NCBI GenBank assembly: GCA_023105745.1
Contig: JALGQZ010000011.1
Location: 25,997,975 to 26,061,974 of the forward strand
Direction of reading: 5' to 3'
Length of the DNA: 64,000 nucleotides
Source: Austropuccinia psidii
Lineage: Eukaryota > Basidiomycota > Pucciniomycetes > Pucciniales > Sphaerophragmiaceae
Shown: piece by piece, positions 1 to 49,319 of the stretch
Position numbering within the stretch: the stretch's first letter is position 1
How the letters are laid out: every line of letters starts with the position of its first letter
Made by a program: the position numbers and the translations under genes
The notes under the pieces: generated by a model
Databases searched by the model: none
Seen by the model: only the letters and a program-made list of their open reading frames with translations
What the model was told of the DNA's origin: nothing

Positions 1-1655
1 TGGTCTTCATCAGATTGTTCTCTGATGGCATTACCCATAGAGTCCAATTCATGATCCTCTGTGGGGGATTACTCCTCTGGGACATTCTCAATGGCATAGA
101 CTTTCTTCTTTGCCTTTGGACAGTTATTGGCATAATGGTCTGTTGAACCATAATTGTGGCAAGAACTTTTCTTCTTAGCCACTTCTTCCACCCTTTCTCT
201 GGGTTTATCTTTGAGTTCCACCCTGAAAGGTTGTTTCTCTTTGAAACCACTGCTTTTATATGGGGAATATTTCCCTATATTTTTTCTTTTCCTTATATCT
301 TGTAAGGTATTTGCAATGTAATCTAGAGTTCAATTTTGGTTGCAGCTGCATTTTACTGCATGCTCTAGTTCTTCTGGCATTTGTGTCAGGAGTTTGTGAT
401 TCCTCATCTGAATATTCATTTGAGGATCAATGGCTTTAAGTATTTTAGACTGTCTGAGACACCAATCATATGGACCTTTGTCCACAGAGTACTTGTAATT
501 TTCAAATGACATGGTATTCTGCCATATATAAGTACCATTTCAGTACTTTTGGATGATTTGACTCTTCGACCATGGCCAGTTTCTTCTGCCATGGATTTCT
601 TTCATCTCTGTGTACCAAATACTAGCATGTCCTTTGAATGCTGTGTTGAGTCTAGCAGTAATCCAGTAGTCTGGTATGCTTGGTACATCAATGAAGAGTC
701 CATCAATATAATCAATGAGCTCCATGTGATCATATTCTTCTGTTCCAGAGAATTTGGGCCAGCATGAGGCCTCTTGAAGCTGTTTTAATGCTTCCTTCTC
801 AGAATAAGACATATTTTCTCCATCCTGGTATTGAGATGGAGATCTTGCCTTATTCGCCAATATTGAATCTGGTTTGATGTCCTCTTGGTGATATGGATTC
901 TCCATAACTTGGCCTTGTGGTTGGGGCTTCATGTTGTGGTAGACATTTAGAAGTTTGTTTATGTCTTGATCCAGACAATCCCTGTGCCTTTTGCTGTGTT
1001 TTTTTTCTTCAAAGACTTGATTCAGTCTTTTATTGGTCTCTTCAGAGGCTTTTCTCAATTGAGAATGTCCCTCTTGAAGAGTTTTGACAATTTTGTCCAT
1101 GGAGGCTGTTAATATTTTCATCATCTAATGGCTTTCTTGGAGTTCTGCAAACTGCTTTTGAGTTTTCTCAGCAAATTGGGACATTTGTAATCATAGTGCA
1201 TCACTGTTTAAGTTACTCTCAGGTGAAACAACATTATGTTCAATCTGAGTGGGGTTAATATTTCTATTAATGGGGCTACTGATTCTAGAGGTATGTGAAA
1301 CTATTTCTTGTTCTTGTGTACTTCTTTAACCAAGTCCAACAGCTTCTGGATCATTGGGTCTGACTCTTTCTGCCTTTGGTTGAAAGAGGTCTTGTTTTTT
1401 CCCTTGTATCCTTGTCTTCTCCTGGAAGCTACCTGGGATTATGAAGAATGGTGACTCTTGGCTACTGATCTTCTGGTTCCTGAATGGTGTGAAGCCACTG
1501 GAGAGCTGGTTTGGCCTAGTCCTTGTGAGCCTGAAGGAATCTGAGTATTCCCTGTCTGGGTCACCTATTCTTCTATTGCTTGGATAGTGGCTTGATTCTT
1601 CCTTATCCTGTTTGCCCTCACCTCCAGGAGTCTGAATTGTCTGGTGGGATTCCAA
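1..1655 (-). pseudogene. gag: Gag of element B1, long frame (capsid and zinc-knuckle part), degenerate
   Basis: On the minus strand one frame, broken by stops, carries a basic coiled-coil-like stretch (about 1124-960), then the motif WPKFSGTEEYDHMELI (about 760-715), which matches the capsid start in elements A1, A2 and E, then capsid pieces down to position 330. A zinc knuckle follows at 161-120. It reads C-x2-Y-x4-H-x4-C, so the second zinc ligand is Tyr instead of Cys. An in-frame stop comes soon after. Gag normally forms the cytoplasmic virus-like particle and packages the RNA. This copy is broken and probably inactive. The assignment to a retrotransposon Gag is secure; the exact start is not, because the frame is interrupted upstream of 1655. 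Confidence 0.75.
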
Positions 1656-2266
1656 CCTTTGGTGATTACCATAAGGTCTTTGAAGTCTATCTCTTTAAGA
1701 AATATCTTCTGGCAACTTGTTCCAAGTTCTGCCCAGTGGGATGCTAGGTTGAACCTCTTTTTGTCCATGCTCTATTGAAAAGGTCTTTGAGGAGTTGGTG
1801 GAGCTGAAGAACTTGATCCATATCCCTCCAGTCCTCTGGTATGAGTTTTCTGTTGAATCGGAATGTGAATGGCAGAGTGGGTATTATTTCCCTCAATGTC
1901 TTGCCATCCACCACTGTGTCTAAGGTGTCCTCCTCTAGGTCTTCTGGTTCTGGAAAAGCCTTCTCTGTCCTCTGTCTGGTTCCTTTGGAAGCCAAGGTTT
2001 CTGAGTTATACAGGTGACATTCCAGAGTTTGCAAGCAGTCAACAACTTAATGTTCTTAGGGTATTACCTTTGACTGTGACCTGTAAAAATTTGCTGTCTA
2101 CTGCTTTTGGAAATTTGCCTTTAGAGGTTACAACTGGGTTAATGATTGTAATATTCCCTGTACAAGTGGTTAAGGTTGGTTTAACTTGTATTGATGCAGA
2201 GTTTTGTGGCTTTCTATTCCTCTGAGTGGCAATTAGTGTCCAATCTGGCTGTGATAAGGACTTCAC
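1565..2266 (-). pseudogene. ORF1-type accessory frame of element B1, overlapping the Gag frame
   Basis: Pieces at 2266-2039, 2034-1744 and 1768-1565 form a second reading frame upstream of and overlapping Gag. The first and last pieces share a frame; the middle one is displaced, so the copy carries two frameshifts. The last piece holds a basic/aromatic stretch ending in KGWNP, recalling NGWHP in ORF1 of A1 and NGWNP in the same frame of E. Its part HWAELGTSCQKIFLKEI resembles HYKELAESIQKIPLKEI in element B2 (12116-12463). Function is unknown to me. It lies in the same frame relation to Gag in families A, B and E, which argues that it is a real protein rather than a shadow. Confidence 0.55.
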
Positions 2267-4409: not shown

Positions 4410-4429
4410 AAAAACTAATAAAGGTAACA

Positions 4430-5950
4430 TAAGGCCACAAAAGGAAATAAAGAACCCAGAAAAGCTAATATGTAAGTGTGATAATCTTTGATAGGAAGGA
4501 CTACCCTTTCAGAAAGTACCATTCTTATTACCAAACAACAAGAATTGGCCAAGTTATTAAGGTCACAAATTTTTTCTGAGCATAAAACTTAATATTCACC
4601 TCTAATCTAAAATACAGAGATTGGACAAAAGACCCACCAAATGGGGTCTTATATTGAATCTCTAAAAAAGGGCTATCCAGTGGTAAAATCCTCAATATTC
4701 TAGCACCAATGGATTATAAAATACCAGAAAAATAATATTAGGGTAACTTTAAAAGATAACAATATTTTTTTCACCTCTAATATAGCTTTCACAATTTTGA
4801 TGAGAGACCTTAAGAATCAAATATATTCTACAAGGTATATATCAGTGCTACACAAAAATGTTACTGTTCTCCCTGTATTCTACACTTCTCAGAAGTTATT
4901 GGCATTTTTCTCACAAGAATAAGAAAAATGCTAATCTAAAATAATGTAAAAACCTTTGAGCTTGTATAGCTTTGAGATACTTAATCCAAAGTGGTTCAAA
5001 AGTCCAGCAATCTCTTAGAGCTCCTTTGTGAATAAAAGTAAAGATAATTTTGGGCCATTCATTTCAAGAAATAATATAGGTATTCATAATTCAAGGCTAT
5101 AATCTGACAACAAGTTTTCCTGTGGGATAATATCCCATTTAGTTAAGTTATTAGGGGTAAAAGTTGTCAAAAGAATGTTTATCAGATGATTACTCATAAT
5201 AAAGACTGTATTATCCTACTCCAAGATTTCTTGAGTGGTAATGTGGGAATTCATTACATAAAATTGAATTATGAGGTGTCAAACCCCCAATTGATGTTTT
5301 CATGTTTACCCCTCATACCTTGGGTAATACAGGTCACCCAGGAATGATTTTTACCTCATTAGACACATCCTGGCTTGTATAATACGCCTGAAAATTCTAT
5401 TGGTTAAATGTTCTCACCTCTTGTGGGTGCAAAAGACTGAGATGTGGTTCTGAAACCACTTTTGGGAGCTTATACTGGTGCTTCTGGCTGTATTGAACCA
5501 CAAAACAACCTCCTGAGTGAAAATATTTACTCTATCAACATGGTAAGAGGTTATCCACCTCTTTCCACCATGATTTGAGGTAAAAGGAGGCTTCCCCCCT
5601 AGGAAAAACAACCCCTCATCTTGTAAACTTAATCTTACATTGTTATACTTCCTGAAACAGAAGTAACCCTTAGAGTATATCAAGATATAGCTATAATATT
5701 GATCATTGTAGTTTTTATTATAAGAGTTGAGTTGATAAGAGCTGCAACCTGGGCTTTCAGAAGACTCATAACCACTATTTTAAGCATTAGAAACTTCTGA
5801 GTTTTTATTATTGATCCATTTATACTTGCCATTCTCATAGTTAAAGCTTGTAATTACTATCTTATAGCTTCTTCATATACTCATCCTAACACAGAAGGTC
5901 AAGAAAATAATTATTATGATAGTTAAGCCACCTGATTCAGAAGGATGACA
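4430..5950 (+). repeat. Older family B LTR in inverted orientation
   Basis: The reverse complement of this stretch can be followed against B1 and B4. Shared blocks include the segment around 4575-4625 (TGAGCATAAA then TTCACCTCTAAT), the block near 4675 matching TGGATAGCCCT on the opposite strand, the palindrome near 5460, and AAAAGGAGGC near 5582. The right end is GGATGACA at 5943-5950, matching the conserved LTR end. Divergence is clearly higher than among the other copies. No PBS or PPT is seen beside it, so it is probably an old solo LTR. The left boundary is uncertain by about 20 bp. Confidence 0.65.
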
Positions 5951-12547: not shown

Positions 12548-13345
12548 TAAGTCACTTTGGACAAGTTATTATTGAAAATATCAATAATAAATATCAATCA
12601 ACTCTCCCCAATATATACTCTGTATATATTAAAAATATTAATAATAAAATATGGTTTGTATTTTATTATGAAGTATTATTATTGAAATTATCAATAATAA
12701 TGATAATAATCAATTTTTCACGCCAATTTGGGTAAAAAAAACAAATTATAAGAGTTTTTCTGTAAGAAAAATTCAAACAATATATACTTTGTATATATTA
12801 TGAAAAAAAGATCAATAATAAAATATGATTTGTATTTTATTATTGAAATTATCAATAATAATGATAATAATCAGTTTTTCGCGCCAATTTGAGTGAAAAA
12901 ATGAATTATCAGAGTTTTTCTGTAAGAAAAATTAAAATAATATATACTTTGTATATATCATGACAAAAACAATAATAAAATATGGTTTTTATTTTATTAT
13001 GAAGTATTATTATTGGTATTATCAATAATAATGATAATAATCAATTTTTCACGCCAATTTGGGTGAAAAAAAGAATTATCAGAGTTTTTCTTCAAGAAAA
13101 ATTCAAATAATATACTTTGTATATATTATGAAAAAAAAACAATAATAAAATATGGTTTTTATTTTATTATGAAGTATAATTATTGGTATTATCAATAATA
13201 ATGATAATAATCAATTTTTCACGCCAATTTGGGTGAAAAAATGAATTATCAGAGTTTTTCTTCAAGAAAAATTCAAATAATATATACTTTGTATATATTA
13301 TGAAAAAAACAATAATAAAATATGGTTTTTATTTTATTATAAAAA
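12548..13345. repeat. Tandem repeats, period about 161-171 bp, in the B2 leader
   Basis: Four near-identical units are marked by the block TTTTTC(A/G)CGCCAATTTG at about 12715, 12876, 13047 and 13218, plus a partial unit at the left. Each unit contains a run of ATTATCAATAATAATGATAA, GAGTTTTTCT and TATATACTTTGTATATAT. Units 3 and 4 are almost identical. They occupy the leader between PBS and coding region on the minus strand. The adjacent 13346-13662 is AT-rich low-complexity leader with no gene. Confidence 0.85.
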
Positions 13346-13662
13346 GATAATATTTTATAAATATAAATTATATATTTATAACTCTTCAAAAAATGAAAAA
13401 ATATTATTTTTTTCAAAAAGGATATGTATACAGTTTTTTTTATTTTTTATTTTTTATTTTTTTTTATATTTTTAATATTTTTTTTTTTGAGTAAAAAAAA
13501 ATCAGAATAGAGAAAAACCACGAAATGAATCCCCTTCGGGGCTTCTTATGGTTTAAAAAAAGTGAAAATAAGCAAGAAAACAAGTATAATAACTGTAAAA
13601 GGCATGAAAATTAGCTAAAAATAGTGAAAACAAGCTAGAATTTTGTCTAAAATAGGTAAAAA

Positions 13663-17693: not shown

Positions 17694-18564
17694 TGTCAGG
17701 CTGAGTCTATGATGAAGTTATAATAATACTATTTAAGGATTTAAATATGACTGCAACATGGTGAAATTACTTTGAAAAAGGTTTGAAGATGATAATAATG
17801 GTTTAAAGATGAAATAATAAGGGATTGAATATGAAGAAATAGTGGTGGTGAGCGCTGTTGAAAGCCTTGGGTGCAGTCTTACCAGTTGGGTTACTATAAT
17901 AAGAACTACAATACTAGGAATTAAAGTATACCTGACTTGTTTTCCAGAGGTATAACTGTTTCTGACAGTTATGCTACATAACGATTTACAAACAGGATGA
18001 GGAAACCTTTTCTGGTGGAGAAAAGGCCTCCTTTTATCCTAAAATGGGGTGGAATGGCCCTGTAGATCATCCATGTAGAGGAAGTGAAGGTTTTTTCACT
18101 TCTGGGTACTGCCTTATGGCTTCCACAAATATTTCATACACTTTATTGGGCTCAGATGTGGTTTTGAAACCACATTTGGGCAGTTTTCACCAATACAGGA
18201 TGAAAAACTTTGTCTGGGGACCACATAACCCTCTTATAACATGTGTGATGTGTAGAATGCTGTACAGAACCTGTATAGGACCCCAGTATTGAATGAACTA
18301 TGAGATATTGAAGTATAAACATGCTTCTTTGCCTGTTTGACACCTCATAATAATGGTTGTGGGATATTATCCCACAGTAAAGGTGTATTGGCCCAATTGT
18401 GGGATTTCAACCTTCAAGCTGCTATAGCTTTGTCAGTTTTTGAGATATTGAGCTCAATGTTGGTTCATTGTGTAGCCCTGGATGGTATCTACACAATGGT
18501 ACCTCATTTGATATGGGTAACATTAAATATGGCAAAGTTATCCCATGTGAACGTTTTGTTATTT

Positions 18565-20401
18565 TGTGAGCCTTAGAGGTAATTTCATATCCCCAAAAGA
18601 CCACAAATACAAAATTAACATATAAATATAAATAAAATAAATTTATTTATATTATTAAAATGAAAATTAAAATATAAATATAAAATTATATTCACAATTA
18701 AAAATTTAATTACAATTTAAAAATAAAATTACATTAGAATTTTGAAATTGCAAAATTAAATTTATACTTGAAAAAATTAAGTAAAAATTAATTTTTAAAA
18801 AAATTGTAAAAAAATAAACAAATTTGGAAAAAAGTTAAATAAAAATTATTATAACTTTTTATCCAATAAATAAACATATAAAAATTATTTCACCATTGGA
18901 TTCCTCATAAAAAATCAGGTGGGGTCACCTCTGGATGAAATTTCTGTAACTCAACTCTAAATAAGCTTAAATCAAGTTTTTAGTATTTTCAATAAAAAAG
19001 TTGAAAATGCTCAAAACTTTAATTTAATTCACACCACATGTGGTGTTAACCATCAATTTTTGTGTTAAAATTGAGGTGTTGTGTTTAGTTTAGAAGTTAT
19101 GAGGAATTGAAGTATTTTCAATTGAATTCAATTGAAATGTCAAAATGTGCGCATGTATTACATAAGTGGACTTTGATTTACATATGAGGTATCAATTATT
19201 ACTGTATTGAACTGTACTGTACAACCCAATTGAATTACATATGTAAATTATAAGTATAATACATGATGAAGAATTAAAGGAAAAATAGATTGGAAAGATT
19301 AAATTTGGGGGGGGAAAAGGAACTCCAGCTCTAAGGGGGAGCTAGACCCCCAAAATCCTTGCTGACAGGTATGGGATGTCAAAATTCACGCAAAAGTTCA
19401 TCACTTTTGGCCTGGAATTGAGTTACAGGGTCTGTGGACTCAATTGATGATGAGGTTTTGATACCAACCAGGGCAGTTTTAACTGTTGCCAAGAGGGTAA
19501 AACTACCCTTAAGATAAAAAAAATCATAGTAAAAACAGTTTCAACTGGTTTATACGCCTCTTACACACATTCTGACGTGCTTTGAAGGCTCTAGACCAGG
19601 TATTGCTATAGTAATGGCTGATTTAAGGGTCTAAAATGGCTAAAAATGGCTTAAACCAGCCCTTTTTTGGTCTAAACCAGGGTTCAATGATGCCATAATT
19701 GGCTTTTCTGTTTTCAGACTGTTTTTCACGACTGACAAGAGTAAATTTTACTTTTGGAGTAAGAAAATTGATGGCTATAAAAGAATGTCTTCTTTGCCCC
19801 ACTTTTCTCTTCATGTTAGAATCTTTTCCTTTTATTAATTAGTTTAAACACTGTTAAGCCAATCAATAAAAGATTCCAAACTCCATTTTTGAATCATTTT
19901 AATCCTTTTAACCACGTGAAAAAATAATTATAATCATTGTTTGTAACTCTTATAATCATTTTTACCCCTGAACCACCCCAAAAGTGAATTAAAGCATCTT
20001 TCATCACTGTAAACTTTGTCACTTTGTTTCCAAATTCACTCTGGTCACTTTTGGGCATGTTTCCTCCTTGATATTCTTTTCAAAGACTTTGTTGTTTAAT
20101 TAATTGCTTGCAGTTCTTTGCTCAATTAATTCCAATTGAAATTGCTCTTGAAGAAATTTCTTTTGTAGCCTTAAAATATCTCTTGTAGAGTATTTTTTGG
20201 ATAAATTTTTATTGTTGGTAAAACAATAAATCTTTATAATATTATTGTTTTATACTAATAAAGTTATAAGCAATAAAATTGGCGTGTTTTCTCTTAAAAA
20301 TAATATTTCTTACTATTTTGAATTGATTTTTACCTTGTACAAATTTTGAGGACAGCAAAAGTACTTGATTTTGAATCAAAGTTTCATATCCACACCTTAC
20401 A
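18565..20401 (+). repeat. Solo LTR of family A with TATTT target duplication
   Basis: It starts TGTGAGCCTTAGAGGTAATT and ends CATATCCACACCTTACA; 1837 bp. It is flanked by TATTT at 18560-18564 and 20402-20406, a perfect 5-bp target duplication. No coding region, PBS or PPT is attached, so it is an LTR-LTR recombination product. It keeps the palindrome ACACCACATGTGGTGT (19031-19046) and a TATA-like box (GGCTATAAAAG, about 19774). Confidence 0.92.
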
Positions 20402-20810
20402 TATTTATACATATGATTTTCTCAATATGTGGATGGAGCTTATTTTCTCCATAGTGTTTGTTATAGATGAGATATGAAGAAATGAAAGAAAAAAAAAGTC
20501 AGCCTTTATTGTTCTCTTTCCAAAAGGGTCACACTTTAGGTATCTCACACTAAAATTGTGGAAGTTATATGAGAGGTGAATATGTGGTTCACCCTTATTT
20601 GACTTTATTTTGGCCATAGCTTCTTTAATTTTGGTGTTAGCTCAATTTGGCTAGTCCCATTGGATAGCCCTGACTTGAAGATTCAATTTGAATTCCCATT
20701 TTCTGGGTTTAAGCCTCTTCCTCTGTATTTCAGATGAGAGGTGAAAATTAAGGTTTATGCTCAGTAACAACTTTGAGCAGTAATAACTTTGTAATTCTTT
20801 GTCCTACAAT

Positions 20811-22637
20811 TGTGAGCCTTAGAGGTAATTTCATATACCCAAAAGACCACAAATATAAAAAATAACATATTAATATAAATAAAATATATTTATTTATATT
20901 ATTAAAATAAAAATCAAAATATAAATATAAAATTATATTAATAAAAAATTAATTGCAATTTAAAAATAAAAAATACATTAAATTTTGTAAGTATAAAATT
21001 ACTTTTATACTTGAAAAAATTAAGTAAAAATAAAATTTTAACAAAATTGTGAAAAAATAAATAAATTTGGAAAAAAGCTATATAAAAATTATCATAACTT
21101 TTTATCCACTAAATAAACACATAAAATTTATTTCACCATTGGATTCCTCATAAAAAATCAGGTGGGGTCACCTCTGAGTGAAATTCTTGTAACTCAACTC
21201 TAAATAAGCTTAAATTAAGTTTTTAGTATTTTCAATACAAAAGTTGAAAATCCTCAAAACCTTAATTTAATTCACACCACATGTGGTGTTAACCATCAAT
21301 TTTTTTGTTAAAATTGAGGTGTTGTGTTTAGTTTAGAAGTTATGAGGAATTGAAGTATTTTCAATTGAATTCAATTGAAATGTCAAAATGTGCGCATGTA
21401 TTACATAAGTGAACTTTGACTTACATATGAGGTATCAATTATTACTGTATTGTACTGTACAATTGAATTGAATCACATATATAAATTATAAGTATAATAC
21501 ATGATGAGGAATTAAAGGAAAAATAAATTGGAAAGATTAAATTTGGGGGGGAAAAGGAACTCCAGCTCTAAGGGGGAGCTAGACCCCCAAAATCCTTGCT
21601 GACAGGCGTGGGATGTCAAAATTCACGCAAAAGTTCATCACTTTTGGCCTGGAATTGAGTTACAGGGTCTGTGAACTCAATTGATGATGAGGTTTTGATA
21701 CCAACTGGGGTAGTTTTAGCTGTTGCCAAGAGGGTAAAACTACCCTTAAGATAAAACAATCATAGTAAAAACAGCTTTAACTGGTTTCTGCGCCTCTGAC
21801 ACACATTCTGACGTGTTTTGAAGGATCTAGGCCTGGTATTGCTATAGTAATGGCTGATTTAAGGGTCTAAAATGGCTAAAAATGGCTTAAACCAGCCCTT
21901 TTTTGGTCTAAACCAGGGTTCAATGATGCCATAATTGGCTTTTCTGTTGTCAGACTGTTTTTCACGACTAACAAGAGTAAATTTTACTTTTGGAGTAAGA
22001 GAATTGATGGCTATAAATGAATGTCTTCTTTGCCCCACTTTTCTCTTCATGTTAGAATCTTTTTCCTTTTATTAATTAGTTTAAAACTGTTAAACCAATC
22101 AATAAAAGATTCCAACCACCCTTTTTAAATCATTTTGAACCTTTTAACCACGTGAAAAAATCATTATAATCATTGTTTGTAACTCTTATAATCATTTTTA
22201 CCCCTGAACCACCCCATAAGTGAATTAAAGCATCTTTCATCACTGTTAACTTTGTCACTTTGTTTCCAAATTCACTCTGGTCACTTTTGGGCGTGTTTTC
22301 TCTTTAATATTCTTTTTAAAGACTTTGTTCTTTAATTAATTGCTTGCAGTTCTTTGCTCAATTAATTCCAATTGAAATTGCTCTTGAAGAAATTTCTTTT
22401 GTAGCCTTAAAATATCTCTTGTAGAGTATTTTTTGGATAAATTTTTATTGTTGGTAAAACAATAAATTTTTATAATATTATTGTTTTATACTAATAAAGT
22501 TATAAACAATAAAATTGGCGTGTTTTCTCTTAAAAATAATAGTTCTTACTATTTTTAATTGAATTTTACCTTATACAAATTTTGAGGACAGGAAAAGTAC
22601 TTGATTTTTTATCAAAGTTTCATATCCACACCTTACA
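20811..22637 (+). repeat. 5' LTR of A1
   Basis: It starts TGTGAGCC and ends CCTTACA; 1827 bp. It contains the 16-bp perfect palindrome ACACCACATGTGGTGT (21274-21289), the block GGGGGAGCTAGACCCCC (about 21572), which can fold into a short stem, a TATA box and a downstream AATAAA. Confidence 0.93.
22012..22017 (+). promoter_or_regulatory. TATA box candidate in the A1 5' LTR
   Basis: TATAAA lies in the context GGCTATAAATGAATG and is kept as TATAAA in the solo LTR, A3 and the A2 3' LTR; in the A2 5' LTR it is TTTAAA. A pyrimidine-rich stretch follows 25-50 bp downstream, where transcription would start. An AATAAA at about 22101 could be the polyadenylation signal in the 3' LTR copy. Confidence 0.5.
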
Positions 22638-22639
22638 TT

Positions 22640-22656
22640 TGGGGGCCCAGCCGTGA
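22640..22656 (+). promoter_or_regulatory. Primer-binding-site-like motif of A1
   Basis: Two bases after the LTR end comes TGGGGGCCCAGCCGTGA. The start TGG would pair with a tRNA CCA end. A2 has TGGCGGCCCAGCCGTAA at the same place. Confidence 0.65.
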
Positions 22657-22784
22657 TATTTTACCTGTGACATATTTTTTTACTCTTTTTTAATCTTTTT
22701 CTTATATTGAAAAATTTAAAAAAACATATCAAAAATACTTATAATTCAAAAAATCAATAAAAAATATTTTTTTTTCATATTATA

Positions 22785-23773
22785 AGTGAGGCTTTAATTT
22801 TTATTTCTTTTTTTGAAATAACCTTTTTTTACTTAATTATTTGGCTTTTTCATTAATTTTAGTGTCTGACAACGTGGTAAGTCAAGAAAACATTGAAACA
22901 GCCTCAACAGTAACCAGCATTATCCCTGCCAGTACTGTTAATTCTGATCATAATAGTACTGTTATTGTGACTCAAAATAACCAACCTGAACCAATATCTT
23001 CTGAATTAATTAACTTGGACATAAGTAATACCCTTCAGAAAGCTAAAGATTTGGCCAATAGTAAGTTTTTGACGTAAAAATACTATTTTAAGCCTTTTTA
23101 ACCATAATTATGCCTTCAACCAGGTCAGGAGCCAGCTACAACCCCTCAAGCAGCTCCCAAAAAGGTAATAGACGTGATTATGGCAGAGGACAACCAGGTA
23201 CAGAAGGAAAAGGGTCAGTTAATGACTTCCAAACAACTAAAATGGGTCATTCTGAAGCTGATAATACTATTTTACCTTCAAAAAGAGCTGAAACCGCCAC
23301 AACAAGCCTCTGTGGACATATACAAAGCCAGCCACAGTGCATACAACAATGCACTTCAATTCAAAGAGTACCAGATCCTTGCAGACCTGTGGAAGAATTG
23401 CATGAATTCTTACCTGACAGTAAGAAAATTCTTGGGCCATCCCAACACTTGCAAATTGCTCAATGGATGGCATCCATTGATGGAGAAGAAAAACATGATG
23501 CTTTTGACACTGGAATGGAGGAAAAACAACCCTCCACCACCAAAACCAGTGCCAAAAACAGCCCCAGTGGCCAGCAGCAGCATTTCCAACGTGAAAAAGC
23601 AGCCACAACCTCCAAACAAGGGCAAAGGGAAGGCACAAGCTCCAAAACCTTACAGCCAGGGCTACAGGATCCCAAAGATTCAGCAGGATGCCATGGAAAA
23701 TGTATTTCAGATGGCCAGAACCATGATGGAATTACAAAAGAAGGAGGAAGCCAGATTAAAGTTCCAGAAATGA
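22785..23773 (+). CDS. ORF1: predicted spliced accessory protein of A1 (about 282 aa)
   Basis: Model: exon ending at 22785, intron 22786-22862 (GTGAGG...TTTTAG), exon 22863-23060, intron 23061-23123 (GTAAGT...ACCAG), exon 23124-23773. Splicing the first intron creates an ATG (A|TG); removing the second joins a Ser/Thr/Asn-rich N-terminus in frame to a 216-codon open frame that ends TGA at 23771. The protein has an acidic N-terminal region, a middle with DIYKASHSAYNN and LLNGWHPL, a Pro/Lys-rich linker (PPPPKPVPK, KGKGK) and a C-terminal helix (MENVFQMARTMMELQKKEEA). In A2 the same exons have exactly the same lengths. I recognise no domain. It overlaps Gag in another frame. The splicing is inferred, not shown. 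Confidence 0.55.
22786..22862 (+). other. Predicted leader intron 1 of A1 (77 nt)
   Basis: The donor is TAA|GTGAGG and the acceptor TTTTAG|TGTCTG. The equivalent in A2 is 48332-48407 (76 nt) with the same donor and acceptor. The joined exons read ATGTCTGA, making a start codon that is absent from the genomic sequence. There is no other ATG between PBS and acceptor. Confidence 0.45.
23061..23123 (+). other. Predicted intron 2 of A1 (63 nt)
   Basis: GTAAGTTTTTG...CAACCAG. Unspliced, the upstream frame stops within this segment (TAA at about 23076); spliced, it continues in ORF1. The A2 copy is 64 nt (48606-48669), and its reading frame is also restored by splicing. Element E has an 88-nt counterpart (36965-36878, minus strand; GTGAGT...ACCAG). 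The ATG of the long Gag frame lies inside the intron, 14 nt before its end. Confidence 0.55.
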
Positions 23774-25197
23774 TTTCTGATATATTTGATTCCATCCCAG
23801 AGTTGTATGATGCTATAAAGGACGTGAAAAAACATCTTTCTGATAAAAATGAATCCATTTGTAACAACATTAAAACAAACAACTTGAGCCTGTGCCAAAT
23901 CAATGAAACACTTATGTGTTTTGAAAAGGTTTTAAGAACAATTAAAACTTCCAATAATGATACTTCTTTTGGCATTAAGATAAATGAACAATCTGCAATT
24001 ATTAAAGAATTAACAGAAAAATATTCTAAACTCAATATTGATGACATAATTGAGACAAGAATAAAACATGCCATTAGTACTATCAAAGAGGACAATAAAA
24101 AAACTCTGGATTATGTTTCGAAAGCATTTGCTGAAGTAAAGACAAATACAATTGCCTTGAAAAAGGATTTTGATACCTCAAAAGAGGAAATATCAAAATT
24201 AACAATGAAATTGAATGAAGTTATATCTGATAATACTAGACAAACAGAGTTATGGAATGAGCTTACATATAAAGAGGATGAACATAAAAAGAATGTCATA
24301 AACTCTATACAAAGCTTACAACATGAGTTAAAAAATGCTCAAAGGTGTAACAACAGTAAAATGAATGATATTGAACAACTGCTAAACACCTTACCAAGGA
24401 TGTCTACACCTCTGAACCAGAATGAGGGTGCAAGAATTCCCAATCCACAAGTATTGGATGGAGAAAATTCACAGTTAAAAGATGAATTTTCTACCTCTTT
24501 TCATAACTTGGAACCATCAATGGGCCAAGCACTATTAAAAGAAGTTCCAAAACTTAAGGAATGGCCTCACTTCAGTGGTGAAGGAGAATATGACCATATG
24601 GAATTTATCAGAGGTATTGACATGATCAAAGAAGATTTTGAATTACCAGACAGATTGGTGACAGCCAGGTTTAACACCTTGTTTACCAAATCAGCTCACA
24701 GATGGTATATCAAATTAAGACAAGCACATGGACACCAGAGTTGGACTTGGTGGAAAACCCAAATTGTCAACAAATGGGCCAATGATGCATGGAGGTTTAA
24801 AGTTGAAACAGCCTTTGAATCCGCCAAATTTAATGCTGATAAAGACAAAGCCTTACCATGGTTTTGTCAACAAAAGGACAGGTTAACAGCATTATACCCT
24901 GACATGTCAGAATTTATGATTCATAGAAAAATTCTAAGACAATGTGGAGGTGACTTAGAGCATGCTGTCAAAAGCAGGACTACTGAACAATCTTCAGCAG
25001 AAGACATTATCAATATATTAGAGGAAGTAACCACAAGAACCAGAATTGGTTCCAGTAGGGTGAATCTCAAAACAAGGTTTAATACACCTTGGAAGGATTC
25101 TGTGGACAAAACCCCAAAGAAAACTCTAATAATATTAAAAATAAATCTGCAGATACAGTCAGAAAGCGCCATATTTGCCAAAGCACCACTCATTTAG
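23110..25197 (+). CDS. gag: Gag (long frame) of A1, capsid region, frameshifted at its end
   Basis: 695 codons open from ATG 23110. The first 220 codons overlap ORF1 in another frame and are Ser/Gln/Lys-rich. From about residue 225 the typical Gag begins: a long helical/coiled region, then capsid with WPHFSGEGEYDHMEFI (about residue 490), SAHRWYIKLRQAHGHQSWTWW and ALYPDMSEFMIHRKIL. Compared with A2, one base is missing near 25107, so the last 30 residues are out of frame and the frame stops before the zinc knuckle. Gag forms the particle that packages the element RNA. The ATG lies inside predicted intron 2, so Gag would come from unspliced RNA. A start at 23770 (ATGA overlap with the ORF1 stop) is a possible alternative. 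Confidence 0.8.
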   Translation: MPSTRSGASYNPSSSSQKGNRRDYGRGQPGTEGKGSVNDFQTTKMGHSEADNTILPSKRAETATTSLCGHIQSQPQCIQQCTSIQRVPDPCRPVEELHEFLPDSKKILGPSQHLQIAQWMASIDGEEKHDAFDTGMEEKQPSTTKTSAKNSPSGQQQHFQREKAATTSKQGQREGTSSKTLQPGLQDPKDSAGCHGKCISDGQNHDGITKEGGSQIKVPEMISDIFDSIPELYDAIKDVKKHLSDKNESICNNIKTNNLSLCQINETLMCFEKVLRTIKTSNNDTSFGIKINEQSAIIKELTEKYSKLNIDDIIETRIKHAISTIKEDNKKTLDYVSKAFAEVKTNTIALKKDFDTSKEEISKLTMKLNEVISDNTRQTELWNELTYKEDEHKKNVINSIQSLQHELKNAQRCNNSKMNDIEQLLNTLPRMSTPLNQNEGARIPNPQVLDGENSQLKDEFSTSFHNLEPSMGQALLKEVPKLKEWPHFSGEGEYDHMEFIRGIDMIKEDFELPDRLVTARFNTLFTKSAHRWYIKLRQAHGHQSWTWWKTQIVNKWANDAWRFKVETAFESAKFNADKDKALPWFCQQKDRLTALYPDMSEFMIHRKILRQCGGDLEHAVKSRTTEQSSAEDIINILEEVTTRTRIGSSRVNLKTRFNTPWKDSVDKTPKKTLIILKINLQIQSESAIFAKAPLI

Positions 25198-25322: not shown

Positions 25323-26414
25323 AAAGATATAGAAAATATCAATGCCACTTTTGACATCATGGAATCTTATTCCCACTTGCCACGATTAAGCAATGGTCAA
25401 CTTGATTTATCAAAAATCCAAGATGCACAACTCATGAAAACCAAACCAGACAGAGGAAAAGGTTATACAGCTGGTAACTCCTGTATAACAGAAGTGGTGA
25501 TTGACAACAAACCCACTAAACCTTTGCTTGACCCAGGAGCCTTCTGCTCTTGTGTTGGTAAATCTTTTCTCAAAACTTGTGTACCAAACTTTGAAGATCA
25601 ATTGTTGCCAATTGATGGGATAAAATTCAATAGTGTAAGTAACCCAATGAAAGCATTGGGAATATTTGAGACTAGTGTCATATTTCCACATATCAATGGA
25701 AATTTAAGAATCACTGTTGAATTTGTTGTTATGGAAAATTGCTCTAGTACCCATTTCATATTGGGAAATGATTATTTAATCATGTATGGCATAGATTTAC
25801 ACAACAACAAAGACAGATACTTTACTATTGGAGACAATAAGCGCCAAAAATTTGCCTTTTTACCATTTAAAAGACAAATTACAGTAAACAAAGTATCACC
25901 AGTCAACTTAGAGTTAGAGAAATTCAAATCTGAACACTTAAATGAAGCTGAAATAAGCCTTCATTTGAGTGATAAACAAGAAAATGAACTCTTTTCTCTT
26001 TTATATGACCATAAAGAAGCATTTGCCTCAGATAAAGAACCCCTAGGGGCAATTATTGGTCATGAAGTTGATATTATCCTTAATATTGAGAGACCTTATC
26101 CACCACTCTTAAGAAGACCTGCATATCCAGCAAGTCCAAAGTCAAGAGAAGCACTGGAAAGCCATATTAAAGAACTTTTGGACCTTGGTGTAATAAGAAA
26201 AGTAGGCCACAATGAAGAAGTAGAAATAACTACACCAGTCATAGTGGCTTGGCATAATGGAAAATCTAGAATGGTTGGGGACTTTAGAGCTCTGAACACT
26301 TATACTGTTCCAGACAGATACCCAATTCCAAAGATCCAGATTGCCCTCACTCAGATATCTCAAGCAGTATATATAAGCACTATGGACAAATCTTCACCAA
26401 TTATTTGGCACTAA
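25323..26414 (+). pseudogene. Protease and N-terminal reverse transcriptase of A1, truncated by deletion
   Basis: In frame with the preceding segment after the stop. Protease: LLDPGAFCSCVG (about 25527), i.e. DPG at the position of the retropepsin D-T/S-G, and FILGNDYLIMYG (about 25755). RT fingers follow: PYPPLLRRPAYPASP (about 26095), TTPVIVAWHNGKSRMVGDFRALN and VPDRYPIPKI. At 26386 the sequence jumps to the middle of integrase, the frame shifts, and it stops at 26412. RT palm with YxDD, thumb, RNase H, integrase zinc domain and the first two catalytic Asp codons are all missing. This copy cannot encode RT or integrase. Confidence 0.85.
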
Positions 26415-27278: not shown

Positions 27279-27290
27279 AGGGGGAGGGAA
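27279..27290 (+). promoter_or_regulatory. Polypurine tract of A1
   Basis: AGGGGGAGGGAA, ending at the base before the 3' LTR. Confidence 0.85.
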
Positions 27291-29116
27291 TGTGAGCCTT
27301 AGAGGTAATTTCATATACCCAAAAGACCACAAATATAAAAAATAACATATTAATATAAATAAAATAAATTTATTTATATTATTGAAATAAAAATCAAAAT
27401 ATAAATATAAAATTATATTAATAAAAAATTAATTGCAATTTAAAAATAAAAAATACATTAAATTTTGTAAGTATAAAATTACTTTTATACTTGAAAAAAT
27501 TAAGTAAAAATAAAATTTTAACAAAATTGTGAAAAAATAAATAAATTTGGAAAAAAGCTATATAAAAATTATCATAACTTTTTATCCACTAAATAAACAC
27601 ATAAAATTTATTTCACCATTGGATTCCTCATAAAAAATCAGGTGGGGTCACCTCTGAGTGAAATTCTTGTAACTCAACTCTAAATAAGCTTAAATTAAGT
27701 TTTTAGTATTTTCAATACAAAAGTTGAAAATCCTCAAAACCTTAATTTAATTCACACCACATGTGGTGTTAACCATCAATTTTTTTGTTAAAATTGAGGT
27801 GTTGTGTTTAGTTTAGAAGTTATGAGGAATTGAAGTATTTTCAATTGAATTCAATTGAAATGTCAAAATGTGCGCATGTATTACATAAGTGAACTTTGAC
27901 TTACATATGAGGTATCAATTATTACTGTATTGTACTGTACAATTGAATTGAATCACATATATAAATTATAAGTATAATACATGATGAGGAATTAAAGGAA
28001 AAATAAATTGGAAAGATTAAATTTGGGGGGAAAAGGAACTCCAGCTCTAAGGGGGAGCTAGACCCCCAAAATCCTTGCTGACAGGCGTGGGATGTCAAAA
28101 TTCACGCAAAAGTTCATCACTTTTGGCCTGGAATTGAGTTACAGGGTCTGTGAACTCAATTGATGATGAGGTTTTGATACCAACTGGGGTAGTTTTAGCT
28201 GTTGCCAAGAGGGTAAAACTACCCTTAAGATAAAACAATCATAGTAAAAACAGTTTTAACTGGTTTCTGCACCTCTGACACACATTCTGACGTGTTTTGA
28301 AGGATCTAGGCCTGGTATTGCTATAGTAATGGCTGATTTAAGGGTCTAAAATGGCTAAAAATGGCTTAAACCAGCCCTTTTTTGGTCTAAACCAGGGTTC
28401 AATGATGCCATAATTGGCTTTTCTGTTGTCAGACTGTTTTTCACGACTGACAAGAGTAAATTTTACTTTTGGAGTAAGAGAATTGATGGCTATAAATGAA
28501 TGTCTTCTTTGCCCCACTTTTCTCTTCATGTTAGAATCTTTTTCCTTTTATTAATTAGTTTAAAACTGTTAAACCAATCAATAAAAGATTCCAACCACCC
28601 TTTTTAAATCATTTTGAACCTTTTAACCACGTGAAAAAATCATTATAATCATTGTTTGTAACTCTTATAATCATTTTTACCCCTGAACCACCCCATAAGT
28701 GAATTAAAGCATCTTTCATCACTGTTAACTTTGTCACTTTGTTTCCAAATTCACTCTGGTCACTTTTGGGCGTGTTTTCTCTTTAATATTCTTTTTAAAG
28801 ACTTTGTTCTTTGATTAATTGCTTGCAGTTCTTTGCTCAATTAATTCCAATTGAAATTGCTCTTGAAGAAATTTCTTTTGTAGCCTTAAAATATCTCTTG
28901 TAGAGTATTTTTTGGATAAATTTTTATTGTTGGTAAAACAATAAATTTTTATAATATTATTGTTTTATACTAATAAAGCTATAAACAATAAAATTGGCGT
29001 GTTTTCTCTTAAAAATAATAGTTCTTACTATTTTTAATTGAATTTTACCTTATACAAATTTTGAGGACAGGAAAAGTACTTGATTTTTTATCAAAGTTTC
29101 ATATCCACACCTTACA
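27291..29116 (+). repeat. 3' LTR of A1
   Basis: 1826 bp, nearly identical to 20811-22637. The differences I see are near 20886/27366, 20904/27384, a G-run length change near 21551/28030, and four single changes near 21775, 21792, 21970 and 22335, plus one near 22500. It is followed by ACAAT (29117-29121). Confidence 0.93.
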
Positions 29117-34619: not shown

Positions 34620-36708
34620 GACAATACTTATGATTGATTTTACAGCTGTATATCACATCCCTTTTGCTGGTCTGGTTCTATAAAATTTAGCATCTTGTAT
34701 GTTGGTTAGGCTTGTGTCAGATGTTCCAATTTGTGGTAAGCTTCAATTGACATCCAGTACTTCATATATCAAATCAATATTATTAACTTGTGCATTAATT
34801 ATATTAATTTCATCACTTTCATAAGTTTCTGATCCTTCAGTGTCCTTTTCAGAGTCAGAATCTTCTTTGTCATTGTGGTCTTCTGTTTCCACAATTTCAT
34901 TGATTTTTTTTAAGGAAATTATTGGCTAAGTTTCCAGCACCTCCACATTTGTGAAACTTTCTTTGCTCATTACTGTTGGATTTATTGGGCTTGAAAGGCT
35001 CTCCTGGTTTATCTTTCTTGATAAATGGCTTATTTGAGCTTTTAATGTCCAATTTATTCCAGGTTCTGCCAATGTTTGTTCTTGTCACTACGTCTTCTAG
35101 TGCATTGATATACTCTTCTGTGGAGCATGGTTATATACACATGCTTCTCAGGGGTTGTTCCAATTCTCCTCCATATTTCTTAATTATTTTCATGTGTACC
35201 ATTTTTTGTGACATTTCTGGGTAGAGTGCATTTGATATTTCAACTTATTTTAAGAACCAAGTCAAAGGTTTATCCTTGTACGAGTCAAAGAAGGAATTTT
35301 CAAATGCATTCTATATTATGTACCTCCAGGCATCATCAACCCACTTGGTGATTATTTCTTGTTTCCACCAAGACCAGGTATTTTTGCCACTTTTTTGCCT
35401 TATGCCATAATACCATCTTTTTGCAGAATTCTCAAATAGTGAGTATAATCTGGCAGTGATTAATTCATCTGGTATGTCATAATATTCTTATAACATGTCA
35501 ATTCTTTCAATAAATGACATATGGTCATATTCACCTTCTCCTGTGAATGTTGGCCACTATTTTAATTCAGGTGCTTCCTTCATTAAGACTTGGTTATTGT
35601 CTTGATGATTAAAGTCTGTTATGAATGGATTTCTTATTTCCTCTTTTGGTTTGACAGGACTTCTAATGTGAGAAAATGGGGTTGATAAATTTGGAATATT
35701 TAAGCTAGCCTCATTTATTTTATCCATTTTTTCATTAATAAGCCTTATTTCACTCTAAATTTCATCTTTCAGATTCATTGTTGCTTCATCACTTTTTTCC
35801 ACATGGTCTAGGAGTAATTCTTGGTGTGATGAAGTCTTTTCTTAAAGTTTTTCTACAGAAATGCTTGATTTGTTCAATTTTTCTTTGGGATGATCAATAC
35901 TCACATAATAACTGATTGTCAAATTGTTTTCTTTGATATCTTTTATGTATTTATACAATTCCTGTTGTCCTTGTATTAATTTTTGAGTATTATCACTTAA
36001 AACTTATGGTTTATTATCTTGAAAAGTAAATTTAATGTTATCAATTCCTTTTTTATTTTGGAAAACAATTTTTGTTAAAGATGATAAATTATTATTTATT
36101 TCTTGTAAGGATAATAAACTGTTTTTAATTTTTTTAAGAGGTAAAATACTATTTTTAATTTCTGTTAAAGTATTTAAAACATCTGGAGACAAAGGTATCT
36201 CTTTGGGAAATGAGGTTGTCTCATTCTTTGTTCCTCCTTGTCCTTGAATTCCATCAAGGTTCTGGCCATGTTGAAGAAATTGTTCATGGCATCTTTTTGC
36301 ATTTTTGGAATTCTGTAGCTTGGTGAATATGGTTTTCTACAGTTCTTCTTCTTGTTCTTCTTCCCTTCTTGGGGAAGTGGGTTGGCTTGGGGCTTGTTGG
36401 TAGAAGCTGCTGGGGTTTCTTACTTGGTTGCCTCCCTCTTTTTGGCATGGTATTCCTTGATCTTGTTGATTTGAGGCTTGGATTAGAGTGGATTCCATCC
36501 ATTGGAGTATCTCACTATCTCCTCCGCTTTGAGGAATATTTTGAGGATGTGCCAGGATTTCATCACTCCTTGGCCAATTTGTGGCAACATTTCCCAATCC
36601 TTGTCCTTGTACACTGTGTAGTACTTCTTGTACTGGCTCATGTAAATGTCTATTTGAGCCCTCTGAATGTGATTTATATCTGTTTGAGTCACTAATACTT
36701 ATTCTCAA
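34620..36708 (-). pseudogene. gag: Gag (long frame) of element E, degenerate
   Basis: Minus strand: N-terminal Ser/Gln-rich part (36708-36337), coiled coil (36192-36004 and on to 35700), capsid remnants (35600-35120; GEGEYDH near 35540, KRWYYGIRQ near 35410), and a knuckle region at 35000-34900 reading FHKCGGAGNLANNF, in which three of the four zinc ligands are lost. The original frame start is the ATG at 36888-36886, inside the predicted intron, beginning MITRRGSKYS; it stops after about 50 codons before resuming at 36708. The segment 34620-34896 is the acidic Gag-protease linker, broken by stops. Confidence 0.7.
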
Positions 36709-37113
36709 CTCTGGTTCAGATATTATGGAAATTTATGGGACTCGCCTTGGGGATATGGCATTTCCTTGTATGGATTCTGTTCCACTGGGGATTTTTCCCT
36801 TCCTTTTCCCTTTTGAGGGATCAATTCTACTTCTGAGTCCAGCCCCATCTGAATGGATGGAGTATTTAGAACCTCTTCTGGTAATCATAATTTAAGAAAT
36901 AAGAAATGAAAGTATTTCATGACAAGAATTTCTTTTTATGGCAAATTTAAAAAGGCAGTACTCACCTTCAGAGTCCTTAATGGTGGGCCCAGAAAGTCTA
37001 ATTTCTTAGATTTCTTTTTTTAATGACAATTGGTGTTGGGGATCTTTGGCAAGTTTGTTCCACCAATATTTCAACAGTGGTCTGGTTATCCTCTGCTGGG
37101 TTATCTTAAAACA
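36176..37113 (-). pseudogene. ORF1 of element E with conserved intron, degenerate
   Basis: Predicted leader exon 37113-36966 (after acceptor TTTTTAG), intron 36965-36878, then ORF1 frame 36877 down to about 36176. The frame joins as ...KDSE|EEVLNTPSIQM and later carries QIDIYMSQY, SNGWNP (compare DIYKAS and LNGWHP in A1) and PYSPSYRIPKMQKDAMNNFF (compare PYSQGYRIPKIQQDAMENVF). All these pieces are in one frame, +1 relative to the long Gag frame, as in A1. At least three stops and one indel in the leader exon make it a pseudogene. Confidence 0.55.
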
Positions 37114-48330: not shown

Positions 48331-49319
48331 AGTGAGGCTTCATTTTTTATTTTTCTTTTGAAAAACCTATTTTTTACTTAATTAATTGGCTTTTTCATTA
48401 GTTTTAGTGTCTGATAACGTTGTAAGACAAGAAAATATTGAAACAGTATCCACAGTTACTAGCATTATTCCTGCAAGCACTGTGATTTCTGATCATAATA
48501 GCACTGGTATTATACCTCAGAATAACTGACAAGAGCCAATTTCTGTTGAATTGATAAACTTGGATATCAGGAATACTCTTCAGAAAGCTAAATATTTGGC
48601 AAATAGTAAGTTTTTGATGTAAAATTACTATTTTAAACCTTTTTAATCATGAGATATGCCTTCAACCAGATCAGGAGCAAGCTATAAGCCCTCAAGTAGC
48701 TCCCAAAAAGGTCATAGACGTGATTATGGCAGAAGCCAATCAGATACAGAAGGATAAGGGTCAGTAAAGGACTTCCAAAGCAATAAACTGTCCAATTCTG
48801 AAGCTGATGACACTATTTTACCTTCAAGAAGAGCTGACACAGCCACAAGAAGGCTCCGTGGACATTTACAAAGCCAGCCAAAAGGCATACAATAATGCAC
48901 GGCAGCACAAAGAGTACCAGATCCTTGCAGATCTGTGGAAAAACTGCATGAACTTATACCTGACTGTAAGAAAATTCCTTGGTCATCCCAACACTTGAAA
49001 GTTACTCAATGGATGGCATCCATTGTTGGAAAAGAATAAAATGATGCTTTTAACAGCAGAATGGAGGAAAAACAACCCTCCACCACCAAAGCAAGTGCCA
49101 AGACCAGCCCCAGTGGCCAGCAGCAGCAATTCCAACATGAAAAAGCAGCCACAAGCTCAAAACAAGGGCAAAGGGAAGGCACCAGCCCCAAATCCTTACA
49201 GCCAGGGCTACAGGATTCCAAAGATTCAGAATGATGGAATGGAAAATGTATTTCAGATGGCCAGAACAATGATGGAATTACAGAAGAAGGAGGAAGCCAT
49301 ATTAATATTCCCGAAATGA
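48331..49319 (+). pseudogene. ORF1 of A2 (predicted spliced frame), broken by stops
   Basis: Predicted introns 48332-48407 (76 nt) and 48606-48669 (64 nt); exons 48408-48605 (198 nt) and 48670-49319 (650 nt), the same lengths as in A1. The spliced frame has stops near 48529, 48766 and 48998. The rest matches A1: DIYKASQKAYNN, EYQILADLWKNCMNLYLTV, NPPPPKQVPR and a C-terminal helix. It ends with TGA overlapping an ATG (ATGA, 49316-49319), as in A1. Confidence 0.6.

What the first reader, a model, noticed from the sequence alone, without database searches (positions are those of the whole stretch)
22785..23773. A spliced accessory protein (ORF1) overlapping Gag in family A retrotransposons
In A1 a leader exon and a 650-nt exon join in frame through predicted introns to give about 282 codons, lying over the first 220 codons of Gag in another frame. 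In A2 the two exons have exactly the same lengths (198 and 650 nt), while both introns differ in length (77/76 and 63/64 nt). That is the pattern expected of coding exons and free introns. The long Gag frame instead starts at an ATG inside intron 2. So unspliced RNA would make Gag-Pol and spliced RNA would make ORF1, similar to accessory genes of complex retroviruses. I know of no such description for fungal Ty3/Gypsy elements.
Basis: partly seen in the sequence, partly recalled or inferred. Interest (0 to 1): 0.85.

Follow-up and report, generated by a model that had tools for sequence, protein, structure and literature searches.

The report
Spliced second gene hidden under Gag
A very common mobile element of the myrtle rust fungus appears to make a second protein from a spliced message whose start codon is assembled by the splicing itself, and this protein's code lies on top of the Gag gene in another reading frame, much as in complex retroviruses.

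Summary
The window is from Austropuccinia psidii (by protein matches; about 1 Gb genome). The A elements are Ty3/Gypsy elements with Gag and Pol in one frame. ORF1 overlaps the first 221 Gag codons in another frame. Exon 1 (no Gag overlap) is 198 nt in 51 of 51 aligned rows, while intron 1 varies from 74 to 79 nt. Variants shared among copies are strongly synonymous in the ORF1 frame: nonsynonymous/synonymous ratio 0.10 in exon 1 and 0.15 in exon 2b, in 22 copies chosen by Gag. In the same nucleotides the Gag frame shows no constraint (1.73). ORF1 is the constrained protein in the overlap.

Two additions. Splicing of intron 1 creates the ORF1 start codon (A|TG), and the unspliced leader is free of ATG for 1,060 nt up to the Gag ATG (about 13.5 expected), so splicing would decide which protein is made.

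A divergent family B has a homologous ORF1. The nearest precedent is CERV of C. elegans Cer1, a spliced protein needed for export of unspliced RNA. No RNA or protein evidence was available; the function is inferred.

The parts
20811..22637 (+). 5' LTR of A1 (TG...CA), 99.56% identical to the 3' LTR; 5-bp target-site duplication ACAAT
22012..22018 (+). TATAAAT box, putative LTR promoter; start of RNA inferred near 22040-22050
   Evidence: sequence; inference
22050..23109 (+). ATG-free leader of the unspliced RNA, 1,060 nt, 0 ATG (dinucleotide shuffles: mean 13.5, minimum 4 in 2000); 0 ATG in 28 of the 40 aligned rows that cover 22060-23109
22785..22785 (+). last base (A) of the leader exon; makes the ORF1 ATG with TG at 22863-22864 after splicing
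22786..22862 (+). intron 1 (GTGAGG...TTTTAG), 74-79 nt in 51 rows
22863..23060 (+). ORF1 exon 1, 198 nt in 51 of 51 rows; synonymous bias outside any Gag overlap
23061..23123 (+). intron 2 (GTAAGT...ACCAG); contains the Gag ATG, so splicing removes Gag's start
23110..25197 (+). Gag frame of A1 (truncated in this copy); in other copies the same frame runs on through Pol
23124..23213 (+). ORF1 exon 2a (90 nt), overlaps Gag; too short for a significant codon test
23214..23285 (+). probable intron 3 (GTCAGT...AAAAAG, 72 nt, in frame for both proteins); unconstrained in the ORF1 frame
23286..23773 (+). ORF1 exon 2b (488 nt) to stop TGA; constrained in the ORF1 frame, not in the Gag frame
27279..27290 (+). 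polypurine tract AGGGGGAGGGAA before the 3' LTR
   Evidence: sequence
27291..29116 (+). 3' LTR of A1
48408..48605 (+). A2 ORF1 exon 1 (198 nt, one stop)
48656..48658 (+). A2 Gag ATG, inside A2 intron 2 (48606-48669)
48670..49319 (+). A2 ORF1 exon 2 (650 nt; two stops, one of them in intron 3 48760-48831)
36966..37113 (-). family B ORF1 exon 1 (decayed here; starts with TG after AG)
36174..36877 (-). family B ORF1 exon 2 (homologous to A, decayed here; three of its stops fall in the region of intron 3); Gag ATG at 36888 in intron 2
1301..1771 (-). family C: ORF1-like frame overlapping the Gag frame, decayed here; homology to A/B ORF1 not shown

Best explanation
ORF1 is a real accessory protein (about 258 aa, basic, predicted helical) of A. 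psidii Ty3/Gypsy elements, made from a spliced subgenomic RNA and encoded on top of the N-terminal part of Gag. RNA starts in the 5' LTR. On unspliced RNA the first AUG, after about 1 kb without any, is Gag's, and one frame then gives Gag-Pol. Splicing of intron 1 joins A to TG and creates the first AUG of the spliced RNA. Splicing of intron 2 removes the Gag AUG. Intron 3 removes 72 nt in frame. So one splicing decision switches between Gag-Pol/genomic RNA and ORF1. Shown by sequence: frames, splice sites, exon 1 constancy, codon constraint, ATG-free leader, a homologous ORF1 in family B. Inferred: that the RNAs and protein exist, and where RNA starts. Proposed function (about 0.35): an RNA-binding regulator that gets the intron-containing genomic RNA out of the nucleus or otherwise controls the spliced/unspliced balance, as CERV does for Cer1 and Rev for HIV.
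For: Exon 1 lies outside Gag. A1-A2 differences there are 5, 6, 25 on ORF1 codon positions (p = 1e-5). In 22 copies chosen by Gag (21 loci plus A1), shared variants are 16 synonymous to 5 nonsynonymous (ratio to expectation 0.10, p = 1e-6). Exon 2b in the same set: 22 to 11 in the ORF1 frame (ratio 0.15, p = 1e-7), and 5 to 28 in the Gag frame (1.73). A copy met in 8 x 10 kb taken at fixed spacing agrees: 1, 6, 12 against A1 and 7, 15, 33 against A2. Among 51 rows donor 1 has GT in 50, acceptor 1 is AG|TG in 51, donor 2 GT in 51, acceptor 2 AG in 50, donor 3 and acceptor 3 intact in 51. The leader has no ATG in 1,060 nt. By a peptide pattern, 28 of the 120 listed MF-1 gene models join exon 1 to exon 2 at this junction. 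Family B ORF1 is homologous (hhalign probability 99.6, E 1.5e-24, 34% identity), and a B copy has an open exon 1 starting AG|TG. Intron 3: ORF1-frame stops in 3 of 1,127 codons against 2 of 12,397 in exons (p = 0.005), and 5 of 506 against 3 of 5,566 (p = 2e-4); synonymous share of shared variants lower than in exon 2b (Fisher p = 0.001).
Against: No transcript, ribosome or peptide data. Introns 1 and 2 are about as conserved between A1 and A2 as the exons, so the 'free intron' argument rests on length and codon pattern only. In the Gag-chosen set some copies have lost sites: of 23 rows donor 1 and acceptor 1 are intact in 22, donor 2 in 21, donor 3 and acceptor 3 in 22. In family B no confident donor 1 was found in the two copies read, and of three C copies only C57 has a donor ending in A. 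69 of 120 gene models keep intron 3 by the pattern rule. Singletons in ORF1 were not cleanly neutral: exon 1 ratio 0.20 in the first set. The structure model, of gene model P0008, is poor (mean pLDDT 67, pTM 0.25), the exon-2 frame has no Pfam match and the profile no convincing PDB sequence match, so nothing identifies the function. Exon 2a gives no significant codon bias (ratio 0.52, p = 0.29).
Confidence: 0.87

Rival explanations
1. ORF1 is made without splicing, from the internal ATG at 23180 on the genomic RNA by leaky scanning past the Gag ATG, as a 197-aa protein that includes the intron-3 residues; exon 1 is something else.
For: An open 197-codon frame with ATG exists; several of the gene models printed start there (P0036, P0038, P0039).
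Against: Exon 1 is constrained as coding sequence in the frame that joins ORF1 only after splicing, has no in-frame ATG before it, 0 stops in 49 loci and no length change in 51 rows. The stretch of intron 3 is unconstrained and collects ORF1-frame stops. A shorter isoform could still exist beside the spliced one.
Confidence: 0.06
2. The protein is real and spliced but is a structural or RNA-chaperone part of the particle (a separate matrix- or nucleocapsid-like protein), not a regulator of RNA export.
For: Basic (pI 9.4-9.9 for one sequence each of A, B, C), helical prediction, encoded next to and over Gag.
Against: A particle protein needs no mutually exclusive spliced RNA; the Gag frame itself carries a CCHC motif (seen in the translation). 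Not excluded.
Confidence: 0.25
3. The protein is real and spliced and counters host silencing, like other small accessory proteins of retroelements.
For: Accessory overlapping genes often do this (recalled); over 90% of the genome is covered by transposable elements with likely deamination of methylated cytosines (PMC8063080, found passages).
Against: No domain or motif supports it.
Confidence: 0.15
4. The pattern is a chance open frame in a conserved stretch; conservation is due to RNA structure or Gag.
For: Introns 1 and 2 are about as conserved as exons.
Against: Third-position bias in the ORF1 frame, none in the Gag frame, flat in intron 3; homologous protein in family B.
Confidence: 0.01

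Closest known systems
CERV of Cer1 (C. elegans Ty3/Gypsy element), PMC10309623
   Same: A Ty3/Gypsy element without a stop between gag and pol and with an accessory protein from a spliced multi-exon RNA; one CERV exon uses a frame different from gag's (abstract and outline, sections 6, 9, 15 and found passages).
   Different: [quoted passage not shown] Here the whole ORF1 lies 5' of and over the N-terminus of Gag, in another frame throughout, and has a start codon made by splicing. No sequence comparison with CERV was made.
Rev/Rex and other accessory genes of complex retroviruses (recalled; Rev also described in PMC10309623 section 15)
   Same: Small basic protein from spliced RNA, in a frame overlapping a structural gene, while unspliced RNA gives Gag-Pol.
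   Different: No homology is known to me; the Rev-type activity is only proposed.
Ogre/Tat Ty3/Gypsy elements of plants with an extra ORF1 before gag and an intron (recalled; search listing only)
   Same: Extra protein 5' of gag and splicing in a Ty3/Gypsy element.
   Different: As recalled, Ogre ORF1 precedes gag rather than overlapping it, and the intron serves pol expression.
Spliced Gag RNAs of copia and BARE (recalled)
   Same: Splicing of an LTR-retrotransposon RNA to change the ratio of products.
   Different: There splicing makes Gag itself; here it would make a different protein and remove the Gag start.

Membership tests
Ty3/Gypsy LTR retrotransposon | two LTRs with TG...CA ends and a target-site duplication | tested here: met
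   A1 LTRs 20811-22637 and 27291-29116, duplication ACAAT
Ty3/Gypsy LTR retrotransposon | order RT - RNaseH - integrase | tested here: met
   Pfam RVT_1 352-508, RT_RNaseH 597-704, Integrase_H2C2 828-886, rve 902-1002 in a piece of another A copy; mostly deleted in A1
Ty3/Gypsy LTR retrotransposon | recognisable Gag capsid domain | tested here: inconclusive
   the Gag frame of A1 (23110-25194) has no Pfam match; 'capsid' for 24496-25089 is a name by position; a CCHC motif follows it
Ty3/Gypsy LTR retrotransposon | tRNA primer-binding site next to the 5' LTR | not tested
   TTTGGGGGCCCAGCCGTG follows the LTR; not compared with tRNAs
accessory protein of the CERV/Rev type | encoded by a spliced RNA while unspliced RNA encodes Gag-Pol | tested here: inconclusive
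   predicted with strong sequence support; no RNA data
accessory protein of the CERV/Rev type | protein-coding constraint independent of Gag | tested here: met
accessory protein of the CERV/Rev type | nuclear protein required for export of unspliced RNA | not testable with these tools
   only the basic composition, pI 9.38, is suggestive
accessory protein of the CERV/Rev type | sequence or fold similarity to CERV or Rev | not tested
   no direct comparison; search of PDB sequences with the ORF1 profile gave one match of E 0.76 only, to protein L
ORF1 of family A and of family B are one protein family | significant profile similarity | tested here: met
   hhalign 99.6%, E 1.5e-24; tblastn E 2e-19
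ORF1 of family C belongs to the same protein family | significant profile similarity | tested here: not met
   hhalign probability 0.3-2.5; weak phmmer scores, best E 0.008; same position and a shared GW(N/H)P motif only

The most novel reading that the evidence does not exclude
Rust Ty3/Gypsy elements have their own Rev/CERV-type control protein: splicing assembles the start codon of ORF1 while deleting that of Gag, so an element first makes ORF1, and ORF1 then lets intron-containing genomic RNA leave the nucleus, giving Gag-Pol. The AUG-free 1-kb leader, the A|TG junction and the overlap would be one co-evolved switch, older than the split of families A and B, and could help explain the gigabase expansion of these elements.
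Probability: 0.33. Interest if true: 0.9.

Novelty: new variant of a known kind. Interest (0 to 1): 0.78.

Why it matters
Overlapping, spliced accessory genes are a hallmark of complex retroviruses. One Ty3/Gypsy case with a tested function is known to me, Cer1 in a nematode. Finding one with strong selection evidence in abundant elements of a fungus whose genome is mostly Gypsy elements suggests that regulated RNA export or splicing control arose repeatedly in this group. The splice-made start codon combined with an AUG-free leader is a simple, testable switch. It also means that hundreds of 'hypothetical proteins' in the annotation of this rust are fragments of this one transposon protein, and that the N-terminal 220 residues of Gag evolve under the dictate of another gene.

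Tried and rejected
Chance frame: rejected by codon-position tests. Constraint from Gag: rejected (Gag-frame ratio of shared variants 1.06, 1.45 and 1.73 in the overlap). Ascertainment: the first copy set (L001-L050: the 30 best and 20 from the bottom of 138 scored places) was chosen by ORF1 similarity, which favours synonymous change, so the test was repeated with copies chosen by Gag and with one copy met in fixed-spacing sampling; the result held. In the final count L064 (5' part unlike the others) and L077 (tandem neighbour of L076) were dropped; with them the ratios are 0.17 and 0.20. Homology of ORF1 in family C: not shown. Structure prediction: low confidence, so no fold search was run. 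Other rusts: the three protein searches listed only the best 120 of 539, 350 and 1,523 hits; of these 360 listed hits 359 are named as A. psidii and one (P0321, source ena) carries no name, so presence elsewhere is unknown. Literature: nine searches; no listed title or abstract opening describes such a protein in fungi; only open-licence PMC papers are held and most listed papers were not opened. PMC12210899 and PMC8063080 were seen as found passages only.

Full report
What was checked. The window lies in a 1.015-Gb assembly, and its proteins match gene models of Austropuccinia psidii MF-1. In A1 the two exons of ORF1 are 22863-23060 and 23124-23773, in A2 48408-48605 and 48670-49319, with exon lengths of 198 and 650 nt in both and introns of 77/76 and 63/64 nt. 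The long Gag frame starts at 23110 inside intron 2 and covers ORF1 for 221 codons in another frame.

The element. A1 has LTRs 20811-22637 and 27291-29116, 99.56% identical, flanked by ACAAT, and a polypurine tract before the 3' LTR. It is therefore a recent insertion. It has lost about 1.77 kb of pol relative to A2 and four other copies, at an 11-nt repeat; the loss takes most of RT, RNaseH and most of integrase (by the Pfam positions). In four other A copies the downstream piece has 1,133 open codons in the same frame as Gag, although in two of the four the Gag piece itself has a stop. One such piece carries RT, RNaseH and integrase in Ty3/Gypsy order. More than 25 of the 150 places listed report open frames of 1,975 codons or more. 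Of 50 loci with the Gag ATG, 34 have Gag open to the end of the piece. Pfam gives no name to the Gag frame of A1; 'capsid' is used here by position. ORF1 is the only separate protein seen.

Coding constraint. Exon 1 does not overlap Gag. A1-A2 differences there fall 5, 6, 25 on ORF1 codon positions 1, 2, 3 (p = 1e-5), and exon 2b gives 9, 17, 32 (p = 5e-4), which is 32, 9, 17 on Gag positions. The supposed intron 3 gives 4, 5, 4. In 50 copies chosen by ORF1 similarity (49 loci plus A1), shared variants give nonsynonymous/synonymous ratios of 0.11 (exon 1), 0.21 (exon 2b), 1.06 (Gag frame of exon 2b) and 0.33 (Gag alone). Singletons give 0.94 in Gag alone, as expected of mutations after insertion, but 0.20 in exon 1 and 0.60 in exon 2b. 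That choice favours synonymous changes in exon 2, so a second set was taken from the first 24 of 150 rows of a search with the Gag stretch 24496-25089 (23 copies without A1, 20 fetched and 3 already held). After dropping L064 and L077 the shared ratios are 0.10 (16 synonymous, 5 nonsynonymous, p = 1e-6), 0.15 (22, 11, p = 1e-7) and 1.73 for the Gag frame (5, 28); before dropping them 0.17, 0.20 and 1.45. A copy met in eight 10-kb stretches at fixed spacing agrees in exon 2b (1, 6, 12 against A1; 7, 15, 33 against A2); its exon 1 differs from A1 by only 2, 2, 2 and from A2 by 6, 8, 23. Exon 2a is too short to tell (ratio 0.52, p = 0.29).

Splice sites. In 51 rows (50 loci, one being A1, plus A2): donor 1 GT in 50, acceptor 1 AG in 51, donor 2 GT in 51, acceptor 2 AG in 50, donor 3 GT and acceptor 3 AG in 51. 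Exon 1 is 198 nt in 51, intron 1 is 74-79 nt and intron 2 is 63, 64 or 66 nt. In the Gag-chosen 23 rows: donor 1 and acceptor 1 in 22, donor 2 in 21, acceptor 2 in 23, donor 3 and acceptor 3 in 22, exon 1 198 nt in 22 (L064 is the exception at the 5' sites). Exon 2 parts keep their length in the 51 rows, but Gag would fix them in any case; exceptions elsewhere are 489 nt for exon 2b in L063 and 470 nt in the L059 copy. They are part of the genomic RNA leader and may carry signals.

A start codon made by splicing. There is no ATG in frame before exon 1. The leader exon ends in A and exon 1 begins with TG, so splicing writes ATG. The A1 leader from just after the TATA box to the Gag ATG (22050-23109) has no ATG in 1,060 nt; 2000 dinucleotide shuffles had 13.5 on average and never fewer than 4. 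CAT, its complement, occurs 18 times. A2 has none in 911 nt and two in intron 2 just before Gag; B has 2 in 951 nt (expected 13.5). Of 40 aligned rows that cover the stretch (A1 and A2 among them; 11 more were too short), 28 have none, 7 have one and 5 have three or more. So on unspliced RNA a scanning ribosome should meet Gag's AUG first, and on spliced RNA ORF1's, with Gag's AUG removed in intron 2. The RNA start is inferred from the TATA box.

Intron 3. Within exon 2, 23214-23285 (72 nt, in frame for both proteins) has donor GTCAGT and acceptor AG. It is unconstrained in the ORF1 frame (ratio 2.08), varies more than the flanking exons (0.208 shared variants per site against 0.10 and 0.08), and collects ORF1-frame stops: 3 of 1,127 codons against 2 of 12,397 in the exons, and 5 of 506 against 3 of 5,566 in the Gag-chosen set. 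In the ORF1-chosen set its variability is not raised (0.042 shared variants per site against 0.064 in exon 2b). One of A2's stops and three stops of the B copy fall there. By simple pattern rules 30 of 120 listed gene models remove it, 69 keep it and 21 could not be classed. ORF1 would then be 258 aa.

Relatives. In family B (minus strand, 37113-36174) ORF1 is homologous to that of A (32-34% identity; E 2e-19 by tblastn, 1.5e-24 by profiles), whereas the Gag-N frame matches only over its last 57 residues. A second B copy has an open exon 1 beginning AG|TG and an intron 2. The two B copies differ by 8, 16, 24 on ORF1 positions in exon 2b, but 8, 4, 10 in exon 1, which is not informative. Family C, which gave the most database hits of the three (1,523), also has a frame over the N-terminus of Gag and an upstream open stretch beginning after AG|TG in two of three copies read (a third has a stop there), but its protein is not significantly similar to A or B, and its codon bias is weak.

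Function. The exon-2 frame from 23180 gives no Pfam match, the ORF1 profile finds no convincing PDB sequence, and the structure model, made for gene model P0008, is weak and all-helical. The protein is basic (pI 9.38), exon 1 alone acidic (pI 4.07). The best functional precedent is CERV of Cer1, a spliced accessory protein of a Ty3/Gypsy element with one exon in a frame other than gag's, required for export of unspliced RNA (PMC10309623; abstract and outline, sections 6, 9, 15 and found passages). An element that needs both spliced and intron-retaining RNA faces the same export problem, so I propose the same role at about 0.35; a particle protein or a silencing suppressor remain open.

Verdict. 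New variant of a known kind; no fungal case appears among the titles and abstract openings listed by nine literature searches limited to open-licence papers.

Noticed in passing
26376-26386 (A1) against 51932 / 53688 (A2): A1 lacks about 1.77 kb of pol, at an 11-nt repeat, although its LTRs are 99.56% identical; its Gag frame also stops early at 25197.
   Followed up: partly
L059:7040-9170: An A copy is A1-like in ORF1 (96-97%) but A2-like in the following Gag-only part (93% to A2, 85% to A1): recombination between subfamilies near the end of ORF1.
   Followed up: partly
23774-24500: The Gag stretch after ORF1 varies more between A copies than ORF1 exon 2b and the following Gag stretch do, consistent with a modular border at the end of ORF1.
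   Followed up: no
18564-20402: Another LTR of the family lies directly upstream of A1, 94% identical to its 5' LTR.
   Followed up: no
12679-13354: Four direct copies of a unit of about 170 nt.
   Followed up: no
G000 C8 43.009-43.026 Mb and C4 65.588-65.596 Mb: A copies repeat at about 8.25 kb, as expected of tandem elements sharing LTRs.
   Followed up: no
1301-2020 (-), L057, L061: Family C: some published gene models mix the ORF1 and Gag frames, so annotated proteins of this fungus contain chimeric frames of transposon origin.
   Followed up: partly
L059, B copy near 4020-4450: Family B intron 3 seems to have a GC donor (GGGCAAGT) in this copy and a degenerate donor in the window copy.
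   Followed up: no
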